Part shown: positions 12,671 to 60,978 of the stretch, piece after piece | Layout: each line of letters opens with the position of its first letter | How positions within the stretch are numbered: the first letter of the stretch is position 1 | Source of the DNA: a virus | DNA: 64,000 bases | Virus record (IMG/VR): IMGVR_UViG_3300031576_000011 | Location: 1-64,000 of that record | Direction: 5' to 3' (one strand) | Notes under the pieces: model-generated | Seen by the model: the letters and a program-made list of their open reading frames with translations, nothing else | Told to the model about the DNA's origin: nothing | Database searches by the model: none | Translations under genes and position numbers: made by a program

Positions 12671-12800
12671 CACTCTGCTGGGGCTAAAGCCCCGCAGATT
12701 CTTCCTTCAACCCCAGATGCACCGCACTCCGAAGAATACGATGGCTGACTCCAGGTCCAGAAGCAGCAACCGCGTGTCCCGCGGCCAGAATGTTTCGTGC
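12667..12800 (-). ncRNA. Predicted omega/re RNA of TnpB
   Basis: In IS605-type elements the guide RNA of TnpB overlaps the 3' end of the gene and runs through the right-end hairpin. Here the tnpB stop codon lies inside the loop of the hairpin at 12675-12697, so a scaffold RNA ending at about 12667, followed by guide sequence from the flank, is expected. The limits are estimates and transcription is not shown. Confidence 0.4.
12675..12697. repeat. Right-end hairpin of the IS element
   Basis: The stem consists of CTGC and GGGGC paired with GCCCC and GCAG, with one bulged T and the loop TAAA. The tnpB stop codon is in the loop. Confidence 0.75.
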
Positions 12801-13859
12801 GGCGTTCACGTCCCGGTTGTGCGTCGCGCCGCAAGCGGCACACGTCCACTCGCGTTCGTCCAACCGCAGTCGCTCGCGGATCATGCCGCAGGCGCCACAG
12901 GTCTTGGACGAGGGGAAGAACCGATCCACCTTCACGAGATCCCGCCCGTACCAGGCGCACTTGTATTCCAGCATCCGCACCAGTTCGGACCAGCCCGCAT
13001 CGGCAATCGCCCGCGAGAGGCGCCGGTTGCGCACCAGCCCACGCACGTTCAGATCCTCGACCACGACCGCTTGGTTTTCGCGAACGAGTCGGGTGCTCAA
13101 CTTGTGGAGATGATCGCGGCGCCGATCGGTGACGCTGGCGTGCAGGCGCGCGAGTTTCCTTCGGACCTTCTGCCAGTTCGCCGAGCCCTTGATCTTGCGG
13201 GCGAGCGCGCGGGAGAGCCGGCGCTTGCGCTCCAGTTCCCGCGCGTCGTGCCGCGGATTGGGGATCTTCTCGCCGGTCGAGAGCGTGGCGAGGTCGTGCA
13301 GGCCGAGGTCAATCCCCACAGCCGCACGGACCTTCTTCAGGGGCCGGACGGTCGGGTCGTCACAAAGGATCGAGACGTGCCAGCGGCCCGCGGCGTCCAG
13401 GCTCACGGTCACAGACGAGGGCTCGGCGTCCGTGGGCAGCGGCCGGCTCCACCGAATCTTGAGCGGCGCGTCCATCTTGGCGAGCGTCAGGCGCTCGCCA
13501 TCCCATCGGAAGGCGTTCCGCGTGTAGGTCGCGGAGCCGCCGTGCTTGCGCCGCTTGAAGGTCGGGTACTTGGCGCGCTTGGCGAAGAACGCGGCGTAGG
13601 CTTTCTGGAGGTGGCGGAGCGTCTGTTGCAGCGGGATGCAGGAGACGTCGTTCAGGAAGGCGAAGTCCGGATCGCGTTTGAGCGCCGTCAGGCCGCGGTC
13701 CTGCGCGGCGTAGGAGACGGACTTCTTGGCGGTCGTCCATGCCTCGGACCGCTCGCGGAGCGCACGGTTATAGACCAGCCGCACGCAGCCGAAGGTGCGG
13801 CGCAGGAGCGCCGCCTGCGCGTCGGTCGGATAGAAACGATAGCGGAAGGCCCGCAGCAC
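12684..13859 (-). CDS. tnpB: TnpB RNA-guided nuclease, apparently intact
   Basis: The 391-aa protein has all parts of TnpB: an N-terminal helical/WED-like region (FRYRFYPTDAQAALLRRTFG), RuvC-I GIDLGLHDLATLS with D184, RuvC-II VVVEDLNVRGL with E268, a zinc ribbon CGACG...CAACG (residues 321-343), and RuvC-III HNRDVNAARNIL with D350. No catalytic residue is missing and length is typical. TnpB cuts DNA at a site next to a target-adjacent motif, guided by the RNA made from the element's right end, and so maintains the element. It lies opposite in orientation to the plus-strand recombinase. Confidence 0.92.
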   Translation of the reverse strand: MLRAFRYRFYPTDAQAALLRRTFGCVRLVYNRALRERSEAWTTAKKSVSYAAQDRGLTALKRDPDFAFLNDVSCIPLQQTLRHLQKAYAAFFAKRAKYPTFKRRKHGGSATYTRNAFRWDGERLTLAKMDAPLKIRWSRPLPTDAEPSSVTVSLDAAGRWHVSILCDDPTVRPLKKVRAAVGIDLGLHDLATLSTGEKIPNPRHDARELERKRRLSRALARKIKGSANWQKVRRKLARLHASVTDRRRDHLHKLSTRLVRENQAVVVEDLNVRGLVRNRRLSRAIADAGWSELVRMLEYKCAWYGRDLVKVDRFFPSSKTCGACGMIRERLRLDEREWTCAACGATHNRDVNAARNILAAGHAVAASGPGVSHRILRSAVHLGLKEESAGL

Positions 13860-15728: not shown

Positions 15729-16138
15729 GCCGGGTCGAGGTCGAGGGCGGCCGCTTCTCGTGGCGGGTCGTCGGCTACCGGCCGATGCCGCCCAACCGCC
15801 TGCGCGGCTGGCATTGGTCCGGGCTCCTGAAGCAGAAGCGGAAGTGGCAGCGCATCTACCTCGTGGCCGAGGGCCGACTCGAGGTGGCGCGCACGTGGCG
15901 GCCGGGCCGCATGCGGGGTCCCATCCTGCGCGAGTGGCCGCCGCACAAGGACGAAGACGGCGCCCATGCCTCGCTCAAGGCCCCCCTCGATGTGCTTCGG
16001 GAGAACCTGGTCCTGGTCGACGACTCGCCGGCGTGGTTGAGCGGATTCCGTTACGAGCCGCTACCGGAGCCACCGGACTGGGCGATGGGCGAGACCGGGT
16101 TCGAGTTGATCCTTGAGGCGGCGCATGGCGGCCCGTAG
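15698..16138 (+). CDS. Possible RusA-like Holliday junction resolvase
   Basis: The 146-aa protein overlaps the end of the previous gene by 31 bases. Near the C-terminus the pattern LKAPLDVLRENLVLVDDSPAWLSGF resembles the RusA active-site region, where D.L...LVDDSP holds metal-binding aspartates. The usual upstream D of the DxDN motif is not clear here. It directly precedes TerL, and junction resolution before packaging would fit, but the call rests on one motif. If wrong, it is an unknown protein. Confidence 0.45.
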   Translation: MPVRGVAPFLSRVEVEGGRFSWRVVGYRPMPPNRLRGWHWSGLLKQKRKWQRIYLVAEGRLEVARTWRPGRMRGPILREWPPHKDEDGAHASLKAPLDVLRENLVLVDDSPAWLSGFRYEPLPEPPDWAMGETGFELILEAAHGGP

Positions 16139-18731
16139 GCTCCATGCGCCGTCGGGCGCCACGGTCCGGCCCGGCCAGACGGGGCGCCGCGCGGAAGCGG
16201 CGCTCGCCGAGATCACGCTGGTCGAGGGCCTGGGCACGATCGATGACGTCAAGATCGATCTCGAGGACTACCAGGTCGTCTTCATGCTCGCGTCCTCACG
16301 TTTCCGGCTCGTCGAGAAGGCGCGGCAGACCGGATTCAGTTGGATCTTCGCGGCGGAGGCCGTGGCGCGCGCGCACCTGCGGCCGACCTACACGGCGAAC
16401 TTCGTGTCGTACAACCTCGACGACGCGAAGGAGAAGATCCGCTACGCCAAAATGATCGCCGAGTCCCTGCCACTGTCGTTCCGGAAACCGATGGTCGAGG
16501 ACGCGAAGACCCACCTGGGCTTCCTCGATAAAGCGACGCGGCAGACCGCCCTCCTCCGATCGCACCCGTCGCGGGCGCCGCGCGGCAAGGGCGGCGACAT
16601 CTATCTCGACGAACTCGCGCACTACCAGGCCGACCAAGAGGTCTACAAGGGCTCGGCCGCACTCATCGCCAGGCATCCGCTGGCCCAGCTGACGGTGTGC
16701 TCGACCCCCGCGGGTCGGCGCGGCGTGTTCTGGGAGATCGCGCGGCAGGAGACCGAGAAGACGTATCCCGGATATCACCGACAGCGCGTACCCTGGTGGC
16801 TGTCGCGCCACTACTGCCGCGACGTCGCGGCCGCGATGAAGGCCGGCATCGGCAACCTGCCCACAGCTTCGCGGGTCGAGGCGTGGGGCACCCCGGCCAT
16901 CGTGGAGCAGTTCGACTCGCTGCTCCTCGAGGACTTCCAGCAGGAAATGGAATGTTTCAGACCCGGCACCCTGATTCTGACCGATCGCGGACCAGAACCG
17001 ATCGAGCGCATCTTGGTCGGAGACGTCGTTCGCACGCACCGCGGGCGAGTGCATGCGGTGACGGGGACCTCGGCGCGGCCCTATCGTGGCCCCCTCGTCG
17101 AGATCACGACGCACCACACGAACATGCCGTTGTGCGCGACGCCGAACCACCCGCTGCTCACCGTTCGATTCCCGCGGTGCCGCTACGGATCTCGGAAGCG
17201 CGCGTACCCGTGGTCGTCTGCCACGTGCCCAGATCGCCCCAGGATGATGCCGAAGCCCGCGTTCCGTCGAGCCGACCAGATCGGCGAGCAGGATGTGCTG
17301 CTGTACCCGATCCAGAAGCCGACGGCGTCCGCCCCGCGTCGAGTCAGAATCGCGGACCACTTCACGATTCCGCCTGGATTCAAGAGCAAGAATCACATTC
17401 CGGAGATCGTGACGCTCGATCGCGACATGCTCCGACTCGCCGGGTACTTCCTGGCCGAGGGTTCAATCTCCGGCGCGGCATCCCGGATCGTCTTCTGCTT
17501 CGGGGCGCACGAGCGCAGGTACGCGACCAGAGTCCGCGCCGCGATTCGTCGAGTCTTCGGGATGAAGTCGGACGAATGCCTCGTGAAGTCGTCCAGAATC
17601 GTCGGCGTGAACTCCGTGGTCGTAGCCGGGCTCTTCGCCGATCTATTCGGAAGAAAGCAAGAGGCGCGCGCGATTCCCGACCCATGGCTGAACCTGCCGA
17701 TCGGCCGCTTGCGCGTGTTGCTCGATGCGTACATCGACGGCGAGGGGTTCCGGCGGCCCGATCAGGAGGGCTGCAGCACGATCTCGCGGAAGCTCGCCTA
17801 CCAGGTCCGGGATCTCTACGCGCGGGCCGGCGCAGTGCCCTCCATTCGATCCGTCGGGACGAAGCCGGTGCGCGGCGAGATCGGTGGCCGACATGTCTGG
17901 GTCAAGCCGCATCACGAGGTGAGGATCTTCCACCGCGCCACCGAGGATCCGCGCGGTGTGCGCGGCTGGAACGACGGGCGCTATCTGTATCTCCCGGTGC
18001 GTGGAGTCCGTCGCCGATCCTACCGAGGCCCGGTTTATAACCTCCAGGTCGCCGGCGATCAGTCCTACGTCGCGGGTAGCCATGCGGTCCACAACTGTGA
18101 ATTCGTCGACGAAGCCCACTCCTTCTTCCCGTGGGAGTTGATCCTGCCGGCGGCCAAGGACATCACGCTGCACACCGACTTCCACGACTGGACCGTGTCC
18201 GGCCGCCTGGTCGCGGGGTATGACGTCGGCCGGAAGCGGGACCTGGCCGCGCTCGTCATCACGGAGACGATCGAGGACCAGGAGTTCGTGCGGCTCTGCC
18301 AGGGCTGGGCGCGGCGGCCGTTCGAGGAGCAGATGGCCAGCCTCTGCGAGATGCTCGACGTGCTGCCCATCGCGGTGCTGCACATCGATCCGAGCGGCAT
18401 CGGCATGCAACTGGCCGAGGCGCTGGTCAACAAGTACGGCGCGCATCGGGTGCGGGCCGACGCGTTCACGCTGCAGTCCAAGGAAATGTGGGCGACGGAC
18501 CTCAAGATCAAGATGGAGCGGCATCAGCTCACGCTGCCGAAGAACCGGGATCTCCTCACGCAGATGCACGCGATCCGGAAGACGGTGGGCGCCGGCGGGA
18601 AACCACAGTTTGACTCCGAGCGGAACGCGCGCCATCATGGCGACTTGTTCTGGGCGCTGGCGCTCGCGACCCAGCGGGAACGTACGGGGGTCGCGAAGCC
18701 CACGCTCTGGACCGTGAGGGTGATCGGTTGA
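16125..18731 (+). CDS. Large terminase subunit (TerL) with intein
   Basis: The 868-residue precursor is a packaging terminase interrupted by an intein. N-terminal ATPase: VEKARQTGFSW (Walker A-like, about 65-73) and DIYLDELAHY (Walker B, about 158-167). C-terminal RuvC-like nuclease: VAGYDVGRKRDLAALVITE with D700, IDPSGIGMQ, and HHGDLFWALALA near the end. The intein occupies residues 277-657, splitting the conserved segment QEMECEFVDEA just before its Cys. After splicing TerL is about 487 residues, a normal length. The ATG was preferred to an upstream TTG because GAGG stands at a suitable distance. Confidence 0.93.
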   Translation: MAARRLHAPSGATVRPGQTGRRAEAALAEITLVEGLGTIDDVKIDLEDYQVVFMLASSRFRLVEKARQTGFSWIFAAEAVARAHLRPTYTANFVSYNLDDAKEKIRYAKMIAESLPLSFRKPMVEDAKTHLGFLDKATRQTALLRSHPSRAPRGKGGDIYLDELAHYQADQEVYKGSAALIARHPLAQLTVCSTPAGRRGVFWEIARQETEKTYPGYHRQRVPWWLSRHYCRDVAAAMKAGIGNLPTASRVEAWGTPAIVEQFDSLLLEDFQQEMECFRPGTLILTDRGPEPIERILVGDVVRTHRGRVHAVTGTSARPYRGPLVEITTHHTNMPLCATPNHPLLTVRFPRCRYGSRKRAYPWSSATCPDRPRMMPKPAFRRADQIGEQDVLLYPIQKPTASAPRRVRIADHFTIPPGFKSKNHIPEIVTLDRDMLRLAGYFLAEGSISGAASRIVFCFGAHERRYATRVRAAIRRVFGMKSDECLVKSSRIVGVNSVVVAGLFADLFGRKQEARAIPDPWLNLPIGRLRVLLDAYIDGEGFRRPDQEGCSTISRKLAYQVRDLYARAGAVPSIRSVGTKPVRGEIGGRHVWVKPHHEVRIFHRATEDPRGVRGWNDGRYLYLPVRGVRRRSYRGPVYNLQVAGDQSYVAGSHAVHNCEFVDEAHSFFPWELILPAAKDITLHTDFHDWTVSGRLVAGYDVGRKRDLAALVITETIEDQEFVRLCQGWARRPFEEQMASLCEMLDVLPIAVLHIDPSGIGMQLAEALVNKYGAHRVRADAFTLQSKEMWATDLKIKMERHQLTLPKNRDLLTQMHAIRKTVGAGGKPQFDSERNARHHGDLFWALALATQRERTGVAKPTLWTVRVIG
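16953..18095 (+). mobile_element. TerL intein with LAGLIDADG homing endonuclease
   Basis: The 381-residue intein starts with Cys (CFRPGTLILTDRG, block A), has CATPNHPLLT (block B with the conserved histidine) and ends with VYNLQVAGDQSYVAGSHAVHN followed by the +1 Cys of the host protein (blocks F and G). Between them are two LAGLIDADG motifs, LAGYFLAEG at about residue 160 and LLDAYIDGEG at about residue 259. All splicing residues are present, so it should be active. It is in frame with TerL. Confidence 0.92.
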
Positions 18732-22199: not shown

Positions 22200-24467
22200 A
22201 TGGCCGCCACCACCGATGTTGAGGCTTTCGATCTCTTCGATCCGGTCGCCACGGTCGACGTCGCGAAGACCGTCTGGGCCTCGCCGGCCGGGAAGAAGCG
22301 GCTGCAGCGTCGCCTTTGCGCGATGCTTCCGAAGGACCACGCGACGTTCTGCGAGCCATTCGTGGGATCGGGAGCGGTCACATTCGGCATGGAGCCAGTG
22401 GCGCGGGAGGCCGTCAACGACATCGACCCGGAGATCGCGCAGGCGTATCGGGACCTGAAGGCGCTGACCCCGGAGGAAGTCCGGGCGATGTACCGGAAGA
22501 ACTGGATCGCGAGCGCCGAGCTCTTCAAGCGGCTGGCGAAGCAGAAGCCGCCCGAGAGCCGGGTCGACCGCCTCCACCGCTTCGTCTACCTGGCGAACTT
22601 CGCGTACGGGAAGCTGCGCGGGAAGTCCTTCAACCACCACGCGGCGGGCCAGCGCGCGAAGAGCCCGGAGCGCATCGAGAAGTTCCACGGGCGCGTGAAG
22701 AACTTCGACGTCTACTGCGGCGACTACACGCCGGTGGTCCAGCAGTACGACGGGAAGGACAGCCTCTACTTCTTCGATCCGCCCTACGCGGGATCGAACG
22801 TCCAGGTCGGGGAGGACAAGTTCGACGAGGTCGCGTTCCGCAAGATTCTCGATGGCCTGCAGGGCCGATTCCTCCTGACCTACGGCGTGACGGGGAAGCT
22901 CGTCACGAAGGGATTCAACGTCCGGAGGATCCTGCCGCCCCGCTCGATCCGCACGATGCGCGGGGTCATGGGCATGAAGACGCTCCCGACCCTGCTCATC
23001 TCGAACTACGAGTTGCTGGCCAAGCGCATGTCTCCGCTGGACGACGACTGGGAGTTCGAGGACGCGGTCGCGGACGCCACCTGCGAGTTCGACAAGGCCA
23101 GGTTCCCGGCGCTCACGATGCCAGACCCCGACTACCTCGTGGCGCGCCTGGCCGCCCGGCAGCCGGCGGCGGTGCTCTCCGCGATCAACCGCGACGCACG
23201 GATCGGACTCGACCAGGCGCTGGTGAACGAGCGGGTCGTCCCCGAGCAGGATCTCAGCGTCCACGCGATCGTGAAGATGATGGCGCCGCTCGAGGTCGCC
23301 AGTCTGGATCGCCTCGAGAAGCGCTGGCAGGAGTCGCTGGACGAGATCACGCACGCGGAGTTCGTGGCGCGGGAGGCGTCTGGCGAGGGCCCGTTCCGGT
23401 TGTACCCGCTGGTGCTGGTGCGGCAGTTCGCGGAGCCACGGCTGATCGAGGATCGCGTGGGCGAGGCGAAGCGTGGTGGGCCAGGCGCGCTCGCGCGGCC
23501 GCATCCGTGCAAATACTGCGACGCGGAGGCGACGCGGGCGCTGATCTGGGCCGACGGGCGCGCGTTCATCCCGATCTGCCCGGACCACGAGGCGAAGGCG
23601 CGGGACACGATCGCCGAGAATCACGACACGGTGTGCGAGGTCCGCGATCTGCCGGTCCACGACGAGAAGTCGGAGCGGCGGCCCGGGGAGTCGGTGTCGG
23701 AGTGCGTGGCGCGCAAGATCCCGATTCTGATCGAGGAAGGGATGCCGCAGGCCCAGGCCGTCGCCGTGGCGCATCGGCTGTGCGGGGCCCCGAAGCCCAC
23801 CGCGAAGGCCGAGTGGACCACCGCGTACATCAACGACCTCGCCGACGCTGCCTTCTTGCACATCTCGGCCGGCGGGAAGAAGGACGCCGACGGGAAGACG
23901 GTCCCGCGCTCGCTGCGGCACTTCCCGGTGCGCGACAAGGACGGCACACTCGATCTTCCGCACCTGCGGAACGCGATCGCTCGCATCCCCCAGACCACCG
24001 CGCCGGACCTGAGTGCGCAGGAACGCGAGCGGTTGCAGGCCGAGGCGCGGAGCCTGCTCGATCAGACGCAGAAGAGCGACACGCACCACATCCGACTCAT
24101 CAAGGCGGAGCGTAGTTCCGACGAGGAGCGGTTTGTCCTCGGCGTCGTGCTCGAGCCAGAGGTCGAGGACACGCAGGGCGACATCTACTCCCCAGAGGAA
24201 GTTCGCAATGCGTGCCACCACTTCATGGAGGACGCGCGCAAGATCGGCTACATGCACCGGAGCCTCCTGGGGCAGGGCGCGGCCATCCTCGAGAACTACA
24301 TCACGCCGGTCGCGTTCCAGATCAACGGGCAGGCCGTGAAGGCCGGGACCTGGCTGCTGGGCCTGCGAATCCACGACAAGGGCGTGTGGCAGGACATCAA
24401 GGACGGCACGATCACCGGGTACTCGATCGGCGGCTCGGCACTTCGGCAAGAAGACGAGGGGAAGTAG
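22200..24467 (+). CDS. D12 DNA adenine methylase fused to XkdF-like prohead protease
   Basis: The 755-aa protein joins two activities. Residues about 1-275 are a D12-class adenine methyltransferase: FCEPFVGSGAVTFGM (SAM-binding motif I, residues 50-64) and YFFDPPYAGSN (motif IV, about 191-201). The middle holds CKYCDAEA...CPDHE, a zinc knuckle, and a RHFPVRDKDGTLDLPHLRNA segment seen in phage proteins next to proteases. The last 115 residues match the XkdF family (ERFVLGVVLEPEVEDTQGDIYSPEEV, shown in part), a predicted serine protease that matures proheads. No stop or frameshift separates the parts. Its place between gp7-like and capsid genes fits the protease. Confidence 0.82.
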   Translation: MAATTDVEAFDLFDPVATVDVAKTVWASPAGKKRLQRRLCAMLPKDHATFCEPFVGSGAVTFGMEPVAREAVNDIDPEIAQAYRDLKALTPEEVRAMYRKNWIASAELFKRLAKQKPPESRVDRLHRFVYLANFAYGKLRGKSFNHHAAGQRAKSPERIEKFHGRVKNFDVYCGDYTPVVQQYDGKDSLYFFDPPYAGSNVQVGEDKFDEVAFRKILDGLQGRFLLTYGVTGKLVTKGFNVRRILPPRSIRTMRGVMGMKTLPTLLISNYELLAKRMSPLDDDWEFEDAVADATCEFDKARFPALTMPDPDYLVARLAARQPAAVLSAINRDARIGLDQALVNERVVPEQDLSVHAIVKMMAPLEVASLDRLEKRWQESLDEITHAEFVAREASGEGPFRLYPLVLVRQFAEPRLIEDRVGEAKRGGPGALARPHPCKYCDAEATRALIWADGRAFIPICPDHEAKARDTIAENHDTVCEVRDLPVHDEKSERRPGESVSECVARKIPILIEEGMPQAQAVAVAHRLCGAPKPTAKAEWTTAYINDLADAAFLHISAGGKKDADGKTVPRSLRHFPVRDKDGTLDLPHLRNAIARIPQTTAPDLSAQERERLQAEARSLLDQTQKSDTHHIRLIKAERSSDEERFVLGVVLEPEVEDTQGDIYSPEEVRNACHHFMEDARKIGYMHRSLLGQGAAILENYITPVAFQINGQAVKAGTWLLGLRIHDKGVWQDIKDGTITGYSIGGSALRQEDEGK

Positions 24468-33857: not shown

Positions 33858-34130
33858 GTGGCTGCCACCATCACCGCCCACGGGTACGGCCGCAGCGGGG
33901 GCCTGATCCCGTCGTTCGGCTACGGTCTCGCGCCCATCGTGCGCGTCCCGGCCGTGGCGATCATGCTGATCGGTGCGGACCCTTCGGTACGTATCCTCGT
34001 CGGTGCGGATCCATCGATACGTACCCTCGTGGGTGCGGACCCGTCGGTACGTACCCTCGTCGGTGCGGACCCGTCGGCGATCGTGCTCGAGGGTGCCGAC
34101 CCGAGTAGAATCACGCTGGAGGGCGAGTAG
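33858..34130 (+). CDS. Decapeptide-repeat protein, 90 aa
   Basis: The GTG-initiated protein begins with a short glycine/tyrosine-rich segment and continues with five tandem copies of a ten-residue unit, consensus GADPSVRTLV. The regular length and the conserved small and hydrophobic positions suggest a solenoid. The repeats are also nearly identical at DNA level (30-base units), so copy number may change by recombination. No function known. Confidence 0.6.
   Translation: MAATITAHGYGRSGGLIPSFGYGLAPIVRVPAVAIMLIGADPSVRILVGADPSIRTLVGADPSVRTLVGADPSAIVLEGADPSRITLEGE
33972..34121 (+). repeat. Five tandem 30-bp repeats inside a gene
   Basis: Units begin with GGTGCGGAC at 33972, 34002, 34032 and 34062, and with the variant GGTGCCGAC at 34092. 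Three units contain TACGTA. The period is a multiple of three, so the reading frame is kept. Confidence 0.85.
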
Positions 34131-57278: not shown

Positions 57279-58917
57279 CTCCTCGCGGATCTTTCACGTT
57301 CCTCGGGTTCGACGGCTCGCGACTCGTAGACGTCCCTGGGTCTGGGCGGCTCGCGGTCGATTCGCGTTCCTGTCACCTTCCGGCTCGCGGGCTCCTTCCG
57401 TGCCTCCGGTACATCGGCTCGCGCTGAAGGTCCGTGCCTGTGCATCGACGGCTCGCGTGGCGTCCACGTTCCTCTCGCTCACCGGCTCGCGCGCTCCGGT
57501 CGTTCCTCTCTTCGGACGGCTCGCGAACCCTTCTCGTGCCGGTCTTCACACGGCTCGCAGGCTATCAGCGTTCCGGTTCATCTTCGGCTCGCTCGCCAGA
57601 TACGGTCCGTACCTCAAACGGCTCGCGCAACTCATACGTCCCTTACCTGCACCGGCTCGCGCCTGCGTCACGTTTCTCGGAGGGTGCGGCTCGCGTGCTC
57701 GGCTCGTGCCTCACGGTTCTCGACTCGCGCACCTCGTACGTCCCGTGGTTTCAGAGGCCCGCGACCTCGGTTCGTTCCGGTTCCTGGACGGCTCGCGCCC
57801 TTCTGGCGTCCCTCCCAGTCCTCGGCTCGCGCCGATTCTCCGTCTCGCCGGTAGTGCGGCTCGCGAACGCTTTCCGATCCTGGCCTGCCACGGCTCGCTG
57901 GCTTCCATCGATCCGATGGAGATGCGGCTCGCTCTGTCCGTACGTGCCTCGATTCCGACGGCTCGCTTCCCTTCAACGCTCCTTCCGGTGCGCGGCTCGC
58001 GCCCCCTTTCCGTTCCGAGTCCACTACGGCTCGCGCTTTGTCAACGTACCGAGATACCTTCAGCTCGCGGACGATCTCCGTTCCGGAGCGAATCCGGCTC
58101 GCTACTTCCGTACGTTCCTCGCCTCGCTCGGCTCGCGGCCTCCATGCGTTCCTTGACTCGAACGGCTCGCGCTTCCCACCACGTGCCCACTGTTATACGG
58201 CTCGCGTCGCTCCCACGACTCTCTTGTCGTTCGGCTCGCTCGGGAGTTCTCGTTCCTGCCGTCCCGCGGCTCGCTGGCAACTCACGTTCCTCGCCCATTC
58301 CGGCTCGCTGCGCCGCCTCGTCCCGGTCGTACCACGGCTCGCTTCTCTTGGACGGACCTTGGCCAGCACGGCTCGCGATCAATCAGCGCTCCTCAACTTC
58401 TTCGGCTCGCCCATCTTCCACGTGCCGAACCCTGTCGGCTCGCTCCTTCTCTTCGTGCCTCCCGTCGCACGGCCCGCGATCCTTGGTCGCCCCTCTCGTA
58501 CTGCGGCTCGCGCAGATCTGGCGTTCCTCGACCCTTGCGGCTCGCTCCTGATCCACGTACCGAGTTTCCTCCGGCTCGCGTCTAGCGAGCGTGCCTCCTT
58601 CCTCGCGGCTCGCGCACCTTCCACGTTCCGAGCGATCCCTGGCTCGCGACTCATAGACGTCCCTGGGTGTGGGCGGCTCGCGATGGTCGCACGTTCCTGC
58701 CGCATGACGGCTCGCTCCCGCTCGACGTTCCGGTGGCTCATCGGCTCGCGTCCATTTTGCGGATCTGCATGACCTCGGCTCGCTACTGGTCGGCGTGCCT
58801 AGTACCGGGCGGCTCGCGAGCGGTCCACGTTCCTTGGACAACACGGCTCGCGATCGGTTCACGTTCCTGAACGCTCTCGGCTCGCGGTAAGAGGACGGGC
58901 CGACCACGGAACGGCTA
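57279..58917 (-). repeat. TIGR-like array: about 48 units, 34-bp period, two spacers per unit
   Basis: On the plus strand each unit reads CGGCTCGC-K, 9 variable bases, CGTNCC-K, 9 variable bases (K is G or T). Block 1 is exact in 42 of 47 regular units, block 2 (CGTNCC) in about 35. Of 46 steps between block-1 starts (57313 to 58878), 43 are exactly 34 bp, the others 33 or 35. The 9-base segments differ in nearly every unit. The edge units at 57279 and 58912 are degenerate, and the latter contains the stop codon of the HNH gene. Read on the minus strand, like the adjacent genes, a unit is MGGNACG-N9-MGCGAGCCG-N9. Blocks can pair as GG/CC and CG/CG around mismatches, reminiscent of box C/D guide RNAs. 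Two short spacers per unit next to a Nop-domain gene match TIGR arrays. Processing into guide RNAs is inferred. Confidence 0.88.
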
Positions 58918-59610
58918 GTCCTTCGTCTCCTTGCGCGACCCGATCCATCTCGCCCCCTTGACCAGGTTGCATCGAAGGTGCGACGTCGCGCAGTTCTTCT
59001 TCGTGTGCGACCCGCCACGAGCAAGCGGCACGACGTGATCCAGCGAGAACGACATCGGATGCCTCCCGGCTGGCCATTGCGCGAACCGCCCGCAGAGATG
59101 GCATCGTCGTCCGTCGCGCAGGTAGACCTGGCGGGCGTCGACCTTCTCGGTGCGACTTCCGCGCATCTTGGCGCGCCGCCGATGCTGCTTCTCGGCTCCG
59201 CGTGCGCGAACCCGTTCAGGATTCTTCGCTCGATTCTCTCGATGCCACCGGTTGACCATGAGCCTATAGCGCTCGTAGTTCGCCGAGATCCATGCCAGAA
59301 TGTTTTCGCGGATCCTGGTTCGGTTGGCCTTTCGATATCGCGCAGCGTTGGCGCGAGCCCTCTCCATGTTCTCCTGCCACCAGCGTTTCGCGTACGCTCG
59401 GCATCGGTACCTGAACTTGGCGTCGCTCCGGTACTTGGATCGTCTCTCTGCGTTGTACCTGTCCTTATTCCTGGCGTAGAACCGTCGCTCGAGTCTGCGC
59501 CACTGCTTCGGGTTCTTCGACTTCCAGAGTTCGTGGTAGCAGGTACCACACCGCTCGTGGGCGTGGATCTTCCTGATTCGTCCACACTCGCAGCAGCGCC
59601 TCGTTCTCAC
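58915..59610 (-). CDS. Zinc-finger HNH nuclease coupled to the Tas-like gene
   Basis: The 231-aa protein starts with GTG overlapping the stop of the Tas-like gene (GTGA). Residues about 5-25 form a zinc finger (CCECGRIRKIHAHERCGTC). A long basic helical region with Y/N/R repeats follows (KNPKQWRRLERRFYARNKDR and similar), likely to bind nucleic acid. The C-terminal HNH domain has CHLCGRF, SLDHVVPLARGG with the catalytic histidine, then N and C of NCATSHLRCNLVKG. Its stop codon is already inside the first array unit. It could be the cleavage subunit of the array system acting in trans; the same domain layout also occurs in free homing nucleases, which is the main alternative. Confidence 0.85.
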   Translation of the reverse strand: MRTRRCCECGRIRKIHAHERCGTCYHELWKSKNPKQWRRLERRFYARNKDRYNAERRSKYRSDAKFRYRCRAYAKRWWQENMERARANAARYRKANRTRIRENILAWISANYERYRLMVNRWHRENRAKNPERVRARGAEKQHRRRAKMRGSRTEKVDARQVYLRDGRRCHLCGRFAQWPAGRHPMSFSLDHVVPLARGGSHTKKNCATSHLRCNLVKGARWIGSRKETKD

Positions 59611-60809
59611 GCAGAAGCCTCGCGGTCCATGAGGGGCGGGATCGGGGTCTGGTGTCCGAGGTGGTCGATCGCGTACGGGGCTGGAGCCGGGAGCCCCTCG
59701 AGCTCGCGCCAGACCTTCCAGACCGTTCCGCCGAACACCTTGGCGAGCCACCGCCGCGCCTGCGCGTCGATGTGCCCCTTCCTCCACCCGAGGCGTACGG
59801 ACCCGCCGGGGAGGTCGCGCCTCAGCCTGGCGAGGACGGCGCCCGTGACCATGCGTCCGGCCTCGAGGCCGGCGGTCGGCTCGATGAGCAGGCGGCCGAG
59901 CAGCCGCGGATCCGGCTGGTCGAGGCGCTCGAACATCGGCTCGCGCTTGGCGAGGCGCTCCTTCGTCTGGCGGTACAGGTCGTAGTACGCCCCGCCGGCG
60001 AGCACGAGGACGCTCGAGCACTTCCAGCTGTGGACCTTGAGGACCGGGGACCAGTTGCCCCGGACCCCCTTCTCGCGCCGCTGGATCGTCCCGTCCGGCC
60101 GCAGGCCCAGCCCGCAGTACGTCCACCACTTGCTGACCGTCGCCCAGGTGGCGATCCCGTCCGTCTCCTCGTACCAGCCCTTGGCCAGCGGCTCGTCGGT
60201 GCCGCCCCCATCGCCCTCCCCGTCCTCCTTCTCCCACGGCTTCATCCCGGGCTGCGCCGCGTGCAGTTCGCGCAGCATGACCTTCTTCCCCTGCCGCTCG
60301 AGCGCCTTGGCCTCGGACTCGTCGCGGAGCGCGTGGTAGTGGGGCCCGCCCGCGTAGGCAAGGAACCCGCCGAGGACGATCGGGCCTGCGCCCCGCACGC
60401 GCGAGAGCCAGGTCGTCCAGATCGGGTGGTCGAGGACGATCCGACTGATCGCCGCCTTGAGCTCCGCCTCGATGCGCTCGACGCGCGCGCCGAGGTAGTC
60501 GTGGAACGCCTCGGCCTTCTCCTGGGGCATGCCCGCGTCACGCTTCAGGCCCCCGATCCGGTTGCCGATCCCGATGCGGGTCGCCTGGATCTGGTAGTAC
60601 GTGTCGACGTAGAGCCGGAGCTCCGCGAGCAGCGCGCGCTTGGCGTCGCCACCCTGGACCGTGGCCCAGGTCTGTGGGATCGGCGGCGTCGCGTCCCGCG
60701 CGTCGACTTTGGAGATGCCGAGCAGCTCCTCGACCTCGCGCTTGCGACGCACGGCCTTCTTCTTCGTGGGCGTCGTGCCCAGCTTCGTCTTCGTCCCGAT
60801 GCCTCCCAT
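59607..60809 (-). CDS. Tas-like Nop-domain protein (RNA-guided DNA binding)
   Basis: The 400-aa protein starts at an ATG with AGGAG 7 bases upstream. Residues 1-40 are basic and lysine-rich (KKKAVRRKREVEELLG). Residues about 55-125 form a coiled coil, as in Nop proteins. Then comes the IS110/Nop-like domain: LSRVRGAGPIVLGGFLAY (135-152), SKWWTYCGLGL (226-236), an AYYDLYRQTKERLAKRE helix (274-290), and RKGHIDAQARRWLAKVFGG with a WRELEGLPAPAPY tail (343-379), ending in HLGH. A charged insert lies at about 160-215. No RuvC-like DEDD domain or other nuclease is present, so it is not a transposase. It resembles the nuclease-less form of TIGR-associated (Tas) proteins. An array of guide-like units follows two genes downstream in the same direction. 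Confidence 0.85.
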   Translation of the reverse strand: MGGIGTKTKLGTTPTKKKAVRRKREVEELLGISKVDARDATPPIPQTWATVQGGDAKRALLAELRLYVDTYYQIQATRIGIGNRIGGLKRDAGMPQEKAEAFHDYLGARVERIEAELKAAISRIVLDHPIWTTWLSRVRGAGPIVLGGFLAYAGGPHYHALRDESEAKALERQGKKVMLRELHAAQPGMKPWEKEDGEGDGGGTDEPLAKGWYEETDGIATWATVSKWWTYCGLGLRPDGTIQRREKGVRGNWSPVLKVHSWKCSSVLVLAGGAYYDLYRQTKERLAKREPMFERLDQPDPRLLGRLLIEPTAGLEAGRMVTGAVLARLRRDLPGGSVRLGWRKGHIDAQARRWLAKVFGGTVWKVWRELEGLPAPAPYAIDHLGHQTPIPPLMDREASA

Positions 60810-60837: not shown

Positions 60838-60978
60838 GTTCTGTGTCCTGGCCAGGGTCCGGGGTTGACCGCGAGGTCCCTTCCTTCGCGCGCCTGGCCT
60901 CGCGCGAGCTCGGCGACGGTCGGTGTGGCCGGAGCCGTCAGGCAGTCGTTGACGCGCACTCCCGGCGCACGCGCGGGG

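What the first reader, a model, noticed from the sequence alone, without database searches (positions are those of the whole stretch)
57279..58917. A 34-bp periodic array with two conserved blocks and two 9-bp variable segments per unit: a TIGR-like guide array
Between 57279 and 58917 I count about 48 units. Steps between consecutive CGGCTCGC blocks are exactly 34 bp in 43 of 46 cases. Inside each unit a second block, CGTNCC, sits at positions 19-24. The 9-bp segments between blocks are nearly all different, so this is not a simple tandem repeat. It differs from CRISPR in that the spacers are far too short, there are two per unit and the two repeats are different. From published knowledge, TIGR-Tas systems of phages use exactly such arrays, processed into guide RNAs of about 36 nt with two short spacers that read the two DNA strands. 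Here the array directly follows a Nop-domain gene and an HNH gene. This is the strongest candidate for an unusual system in the window.
Basis: partly seen in the sequence, partly recalled or inferred. Interest (0 to 1): 0.97.

Follow-up and report, generated by a model that had tools for sequence, protein, structure and literature searches.

The report
Phage TIGR-Tas RNA-guided DNA-targeting locus
This phage carries a recently described RNA-guided DNA-targeting system, TIGR-Tas, with an unusually long store of 48 two-part guides; the family is known, but this example has shorter guide units than usual and an extra nuclease gene set exactly between the guide-binding protein gene and the guide array.

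Summary
Minus strand, 58919 to 57279: 48 units, 45 of 48 steps exactly 34 bp. Each unit reads [A/C]GCGAGCCG (edge repeat), 9-nt spacer A, [A/C]GGNACG (loop repeat), 9-nt spacer B. Both end edge repeats are truncated, as published for TIGR arrays.

The gene upstream (59607-60809) passes NCBI's curated TIGR-Tas model (113.1 bits, cut-off 100). It matches TasR (PDB 9mty, 9e-19), and its predicted fold matches TasR and TasH first. It has no nuclease domain, so it is TasA-type.

A survey of IMG/VR phage contigs found 175 arrays sharing the GCGAGCC edge. All 133 with a Tas gene in hand lie on its strand. In 101 of 102 scorable 36-bp arrays, edge and loop repeats share the same end bases.

Differences from the usual form: a 34-nt unit with a 7-nt loop repeat, shortened separately from other 34-bp loci; the longest array seen; and a free-standing HNH gene whose start overlaps the tasA stop and whose stop overlaps the array. 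None of 50 relatives has an HNH there, and its GC is low, so it is probably a homing-type passenger. A trans-acting nuclease is not excluded. No natural target was found.

The parts
57279..58919 (-). TIGR dual-repeat array, 48 units of 34 nt, read on the minus strand: edge MGCGAGCCG, spacer A (9 nt), loop MGGNACG, spacer B (9 nt)
   Evidence: co-orientation with the Tas gene in 133 of 133 related arrays
58912..58919 (-). 5'-truncated first edge repeat ACTAGCCG (AGCCG kept), overlapping the TAG stop of the HNH gene
   Evidence: the same junction (stop codon against AGCC) occurs at the Tas stop in 30 of 90 related loci
57279..57286 (-). 3'-truncated last edge repeat GCGAGGAG (GCGAG kept)
58640..58681 (-). 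unit sharing 16 of 18 spacer bases with the unit at 57313-57354 (one difference in each spacer, both at position 5)
57313..57354 (-). the other copy of that near-duplicate unit
59607..60809 (-). tasA: Nop-domain Tas protein, 400 aa (P0001; an in-frame GTG at 60959 would give 450 aa), no nuclease domain, insertion of about 65 residues at 155-222
58915..59610 (-). free-standing HNH endonuclease gene, 231 aa, GTG start overlapping the tasA stop (GTGA), TAG stop overlapping the array; GC 61.8%
   Evidence: probably a passenger

Best explanation
A phage-borne TIGR-Tas locus of the TasA (nuclease-lacking) kind. Inferred path: tasA, the HNH gene and the array are transcribed together on the minus strand; a TasA dimer binds the long precursor; an unidentified host RNase cuts within each edge repeat to give about 48 different guides of about 34 nt (half edge, 9-nt spacer A, 7-nt loop, 9-nt spacer B, half edge). 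Each guide-TasA complex melts and bends an 18-bp DNA site in which spacer A pairs with one strand and spacer B with the other. Lacking a nuclease, TasA most likely blocks transcription or replication, or biases the inheritance, of competing mobile DNA. Shown here: the array, the Tas identity, the strand, the repeat ends and the family-wide linkage. Inferred from the published family: RNA processing, guide length, two-strand targeting. Speculative: the biological role and the targets (I would put the non-cleaving interference role at about 0.55). The HNH gene is most likely a homing-type passenger.
For: Array anatomy. NCBIfam NF052498 TIGR_Tas_endo 113.1 bits over cut-off 100. phmmer to TasR 9mty_A 9e-19 and TasH 21kl_A 1.7e-4; family profile 4e-63 and 1e-46. 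AlphaFold2 model with pLDDT 80.5; its 11 Foldseek matches at E<=0.001 are all TasR or TasH chains. Related phage loci with dual-repeat arrays next to the gene. 133 of 133 arrays co-oriented with the Tas gene, median gap 43 bp; edge and loop ends identical in 101 of 102 scorable 36-bp arrays. Tas stop codon abutting or overlapping a truncated AGCC edge in 30 of 90 loci, the same junction as here. Published family features: PMC12045711.
Against: The 7-nt loop and 34-nt unit lie just outside the published 8-12 nt repeats and 36-nt guides. No intrinsic terminator was found after the array. No target was found in the phage's own 97 kb, so guide function is not shown for this locus. TasA function is itself untested in the founding paper beyond RNA binding.
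Confidence: 0.93

Rival explanations
1. A two-gene, split-TasH TIGR system: the HNH protein is the nuclease partner of the TasA-guide complex and cuts the DNA that TasA opens, replacing the HNH domain that TasH carries in one chain.
For: The HNH start overlaps the tasA stop (GTGA) and its stop overlaps the first truncated edge repeat, so the gene fills the gap without a spare base. TasH shows that an HNH can serve a Tas protein (PMC12045711).
Against: In 50 related contigs no HNH lies between Tas gene and array; one lies about 0.3 kb beyond an array. The HNH protein gave no PDB match to TasH at E<=1. It resembles free-standing phage HNH proteins. GC 61.8% and GC3 0.77 against 71.5% and 0.93 for tasA. 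The phage carries other homing-type elements.
Confidence: 0.2
2. The array is not a guide array but DNA-binding sites (iterons, partition or regulatory sites) next to an IS110-like protein.
For: Long arrays of short sites exist in phages and plasmids (general knowledge); PHROGs calls relatives 'transposase'.
Against: Two different alternating repeats with exactly 9-nt variable segments, matching end bases and strict co-orientation with a Tas gene across phages; curated Tas model and Tas structures as best matches.
Confidence: 0.03
3. A decayed or inactive TIGR locus: array and tasA persist but no longer work, the HNH insertion having broken expression.
For: A recently acquired-looking HNH gene sits between tasA and the array; no targets found in the own genome; no terminator.
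Against: tasA is full length with conserved C-terminus and strong coding signature (GC3 0.93); edge and loop repeats are almost invariant over 48 units; the reading frames and array junctions are intact.
Confidence: 0.08

Closest known systems
TIGR-TasA systems (Faure et al. 2025, PMC12045711), e.g. Flavonifractor plautii FpTIGR
   Same: Solo Nop-domain protein, co-oriented dual-repeat array, 9-nt spacers, truncated end edge repeats, edge and loop repeats sharing end bases
   Different: 34-nt unit with 7-nt loop instead of 36; 48 units where 5-15 are usual; HNH gene between tasA and array; about 65-residue insertion in the Nop region; no intrinsic terminator seen
TIGR-TasH (Salicola phage CGphi29; TasH structures PDB 21kl and relatives)
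   Same: Phage-borne; Nop part is homologous; an HNH protein is encoded at the locus
   Different: Here the HNH is a separate gene without detectable sequence match to TasH, not an N-terminal domain of the Tas protein
TIGR-TasR (PDB 9mty)
   Same: Best PDB match of the window's protein by sequence and fold
   Different: No RuvC domain in the window's protein; repeats start with [A/C]G and end in CG instead of UG and CCA
Microcystis phage Mvi-JY20 locus (PP438412, L001)
   Same: Homologous gene with an array directly downstream and the same GCGAGCC edge core; stop codon overlaps the truncated first edge
   Different: 36-bp unit, loop ACGAAACC, 8 edge repeats counted, terminator present; annotated only as hypothetical protein
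IS110 transposases and box C/D sRNP (Nop5)
   Same: Nop-type RNA-binding fold, two-part guides
   Different: No DEDD domain, no bridge RNA; Pfam Nop (PF01798) does not match

Membership tests
TIGR-Tas | Nop-domain Tas protein encoded next to the array | tested here: met
   NCBIfam NF052498 above its curated cut-off; PDB and fold matches
TIGR-Tas | Array of two distinct alternating repeats separated by two short spacers (9 nt) | tested here: met
   edge, 9 nt, loop, 9 nt in 45 of 48 units at 34 bp
TIGR-Tas | Repeat size 8-12 nt and 36-nt guide (published range and three tested systems; descriptive, not a criterion) | tested here: inconclusive
   Edge 9 nt fits; loop 7 nt and unit 34 nt fall just below. 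16 of 175 edge-matched arrays in related contigs also have 34 bp
TIGR-Tas | Edge and loop repeats share box D (start) and box C (end) bases | tested here: met
   Both read [A/C]G...CG here; rule holds in 101 of 102 scorable 36-bp arrays
TIGR-Tas | Array begins and ends with truncated edge repeats | tested here: met
   ACTAGCCG at 58919-58912 and GCGAGGAG at 57286-57279
TIGR-Tas | Rho-independent terminator after the array (described as typical, not a criterion) | tested here: not met
   No hairpin with T-run after the array; a minus-strand gene starts about 75 bp further on. Typical only, so not taken as excluding membership
TIGR-Tas | Array processed to guide RNAs bound by the Tas protein | not testable with these tools
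   Needs small-RNA sequencing
TIGR-Tas | Two spacers pair with opposite strands of one DNA target | tested here: inconclusive
   No targets found; weak family-level purine anti-correlation of spacers A and B (z -2.9), absent in the window alone
TasA subtype | Tas protein without RuvC or HNH domain | tested here: met
   No Pfam nuclease in P0001; only about 54 residues before the first long helix
TasH subtype | HNH domain fused to the N-terminus of the Tas protein | tested here: not met
   HNH is a separate gene downstream of tasA without sequence match to TasH
CRISPR-Cas | One repeat type of about 25-36 nt with spacers of similar length, cas genes | tested here: not met
   Two repeats of 7 and 9 nt, 9-nt spacers; no Cas effector family in the genes tested beside the array
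IS110 transposase | N-terminal DEDD domain plus C-terminal Nop-like domain | tested here: not met
   No Pfam or NCBIfam IS110 match for P0001

The most novel reading that the evidence does not exclude
A two-gene TIGR effector: the translationally coupled HNH protein acts in trans as the nuclease of a TasA complex loaded with 34-nt guides, so that nuclease gain in Tas systems can begin as an adjacent homing-type gene that is later fused (a route to TasH).
Probability: 0.18. Interest if true: 0.75.

Novelty: new member of a known kind. Interest (0 to 1): 0.52.

Why it matters
TIGR-Tas rests on one founding study, and its natural targets, guide supply and role are open questions. This locus offers 48 natural dual guides in one phage, the largest array among the 175 surveyed here, plus a shortened guide unit that arose separately, which would test how much of the loop repeat a Tas protein needs. 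The survey adds family-level rules that can be checked: a nearly constant GCGAGCC edge in this part of the family (the arrays were found with it, so its share among all TIGR arrays is not measured), matching repeat ends, strict co-orientation, and a stop codon that runs into the first edge repeat.

Tried and rejected
Coding repeat: rejected (period not a multiple of 3, +/-1 steps). Self-targeting: no hit with up to 1 mismatch in the phage's 97 kb. Self-avoidance: in the published geometry hits with up to 3 mismatches were low in the own genome (9 against 17.7 +/- 4.1 for mispaired spacers), but 28 related contigs with 636 units showed none (83 against 86.5), so I drop it. Targets in about 2 Mb of related phage DNA plus the window: 1081 units of other arrays matched no more often than mispaired spacers; the window's own units were tested only against its own genome. 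rRNA-like spacer composition: considered because spacers are purine-rich at 56% GC; arrays in general have spacers closer to even composition than their contig, so not pursued. Close relatives of the phage: none for window 1-25000 in the phage collection; the DUF932 neighbour found only two distant loci without Tas or array. Cellular homologues: one genome-contig scan returned none, which reflects narrow peptide patterns and is not evidence of absence. Rfam and tRNA scans of the window were empty.

Full report
OBSERVATION. On the minus strand the region reads as 48 units between 58919 and 57279. Forty-five of 48 steps are 34 bp, two are 35, one is 33. Column statistics over 45 regular units give an edge repeat [A/C]GCGAGCCG (9 nt), a 9-nt spacer A, a loop repeat [A/C]GGNACG (7 nt) and a 9-nt spacer B. 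The spacer columns are close to random; the G of the loop start and the C and G of its end are invariant. The first edge repeat lacks its 5' half (ACTAGCCG) and the last lacks its 3' half (GCGAGGAG). This is the published form of a TIGR array (PMC12045711). The period is not a multiple of three, so a coding repeat is excluded even though long open frames cross it.

THE GENE. Upstream on the same strand lies a 400-residue protein (59607-60809, P0001). Pfam alone is silent, but NCBIfam's TIGR-Tas model scores 113.1 bits against a cut-off of 100. phmmer finds TasR (9mty_A, 9e-19) and TasH (21kl_A, 1.7e-4) in the PDB, and a profile of 72 relatives finds them at 4e-63 and 1e-46, ahead of IS621 and ISCro4 transposases at about 1e-7. 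AlphaFold2 gives mean pLDDT 80.5 and all 11 Foldseek matches at E<=0.001 are TasR or TasH chains. There is no RuvC or HNH domain, so the protein is TasA-type. An insertion of about 65 residues (155-222) interrupts the Nop region relative to its nearest relatives.

RELATIVES. The Microcystis phage Mvi-JY20 homologue is followed at once by an array with the same GCGAGCC edge core, 36-bp unit and a terminator. A profile scan of IMG/VR gave 59 loci, many with 36-bp arrays beside the gene. Among 175 arrays of four or more exact edges, 155 have 36 bp and 16 have 34 bp; all 133 with a Tas gene in hand lie on its strand, at a median gap of 43 bp; and in 101 of 102 scorable 36-bp arrays the first and last bases of edge and loop repeats are the same. 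Some loci overlap on one contig, so these counts are not all independent. [quoted passage not shown] The window's repeats obey it ([A/C]G at the start, CG at the end). In a tree the window's protein joins L005 and L076 (100/95), both with 36-bp arrays, while the other 34-bp loci sit elsewhere, so the short unit arose separately here. No other array surveyed has more than 35 exact edge repeats.

THE HNH GENE. Between tasA and the array lies a 231-residue HNH protein gene. Its GTG start overlaps the tasA stop (GTGA) and its TAG stop overlaps the truncated first edge repeat. In 30 of 90 related loci it is the Tas stop codon that abuts or overlaps this truncated repeat, so the HNH gene sits exactly in that seam. 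Of 50 related contigs none has a Pfam HNH between Tas and array, and only one has an HNH near an array, about 0.3 kb beyond it (coordinates compared). The gene's GC (61.8%) and GC3 (0.77) differ from tasA (71.5%, 0.93), its relatives are free-standing phage HNH proteins, and the phage also has a Hint/intein signature in the helicase, Hint and LAGLIDADG domains in the terminase and a TnpB. A passenger is the simplest account; a nuclease working in trans with TasA is the most interesting one not excluded.

TARGETS. From the published 8-nt 3' overhang I inferred that a target reads spacer A then reverse-complement spacer B on one strand; this is my deduction, not a statement of the paper. With 0-2 bp gaps, no match with up to one mismatch exists in the phage's 97 kb. 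In about 2 Mb of related phage DNA, 1081 units of other arrays matched no more often than mispaired spacers. An apparent lack of near self-matches in the own genome did not recur in 28 other contigs. Across 1209 units the purine content of spacers A and B is anti-correlated within a unit (z -2.9), which fits spacers read from opposite strands of one site, but the effect is weak and one of several tested; in the window alone it is absent. Natural targets stay unknown.

ARRAY HISTORY. Units 58674 and 57347 share 16 of 18 spacer bases and differ once in each spacer, both at position 5. Similar near-duplicates occur in other arrays. This suggests unit duplication followed by change, or two guides against variants of one target; the data cannot tell which.

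VERDICT. A genuine phage TIGR-TasA locus, a new member of a known family, with three departures worth testing: short unit, long array, and an HNH gene in the tasA-array seam. Whether this contig is in the founding paper's supplementary table could not be checked (supplements not available).

Noticed in passing
window 12684-13859 (-): TnpB-like protein (OrfB_IS605, Cas12f1-like TNB, HTH_OrfB): a second RNA-guided nuclease family in the same phage.
   Followed up: partly
window 16113-18731 (+) and 61871-64492 (-): Hint/intein signatures in the large terminase (with a LAGLIDADG domain) and in the SNF2-like helicase.
   Followed up: partly
window 22200-24467 (+): One open frame with a D12-class N6-adenine methyltransferase at its start and a phage S78 protease at its end: an unusual fusion or insertion.
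   Followed up: no
window 33970-34103 (+): Four to five 30-bp repeats (TCGGTGCGGACCCGTCGGTACGTACCCTCG) in or near the end of a gene; 30 is a multiple of 3, so probably a coding repeat.
   Followed up: no
L131, L132, L071: Contigs of 28-51 kb with GCGAGCC dual-repeat arrays but no Tas gene found by the family profile: divergent Tas, array-only elements, or fragments.
   Followed up: partly
L002-L004, L031-L043: Tas homologues in Mycobacterium and Gordonia phages, annotated as hypothetical protein or transposase, without a dual-repeat array within 6 kb by the periodicity scan; stem-loop arrays were not looked for.
   Followed up: partly
related loci: In 30 of 90 loci the Tas stop codon abuts or overlaps the truncated first edge repeat (TAGCC, TAAGCC, TGAGCC), tying the end of translation to the start of the array.
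   Followed up: partly
window 57279-58917 and related arrays: Spacers have more even base composition than the contig (window 56% against 69% GC; 103 loci 50% against 57%) and lean to purines; spacer B positions 4 and 7 in the window almost lack T.
   Followed up: partly
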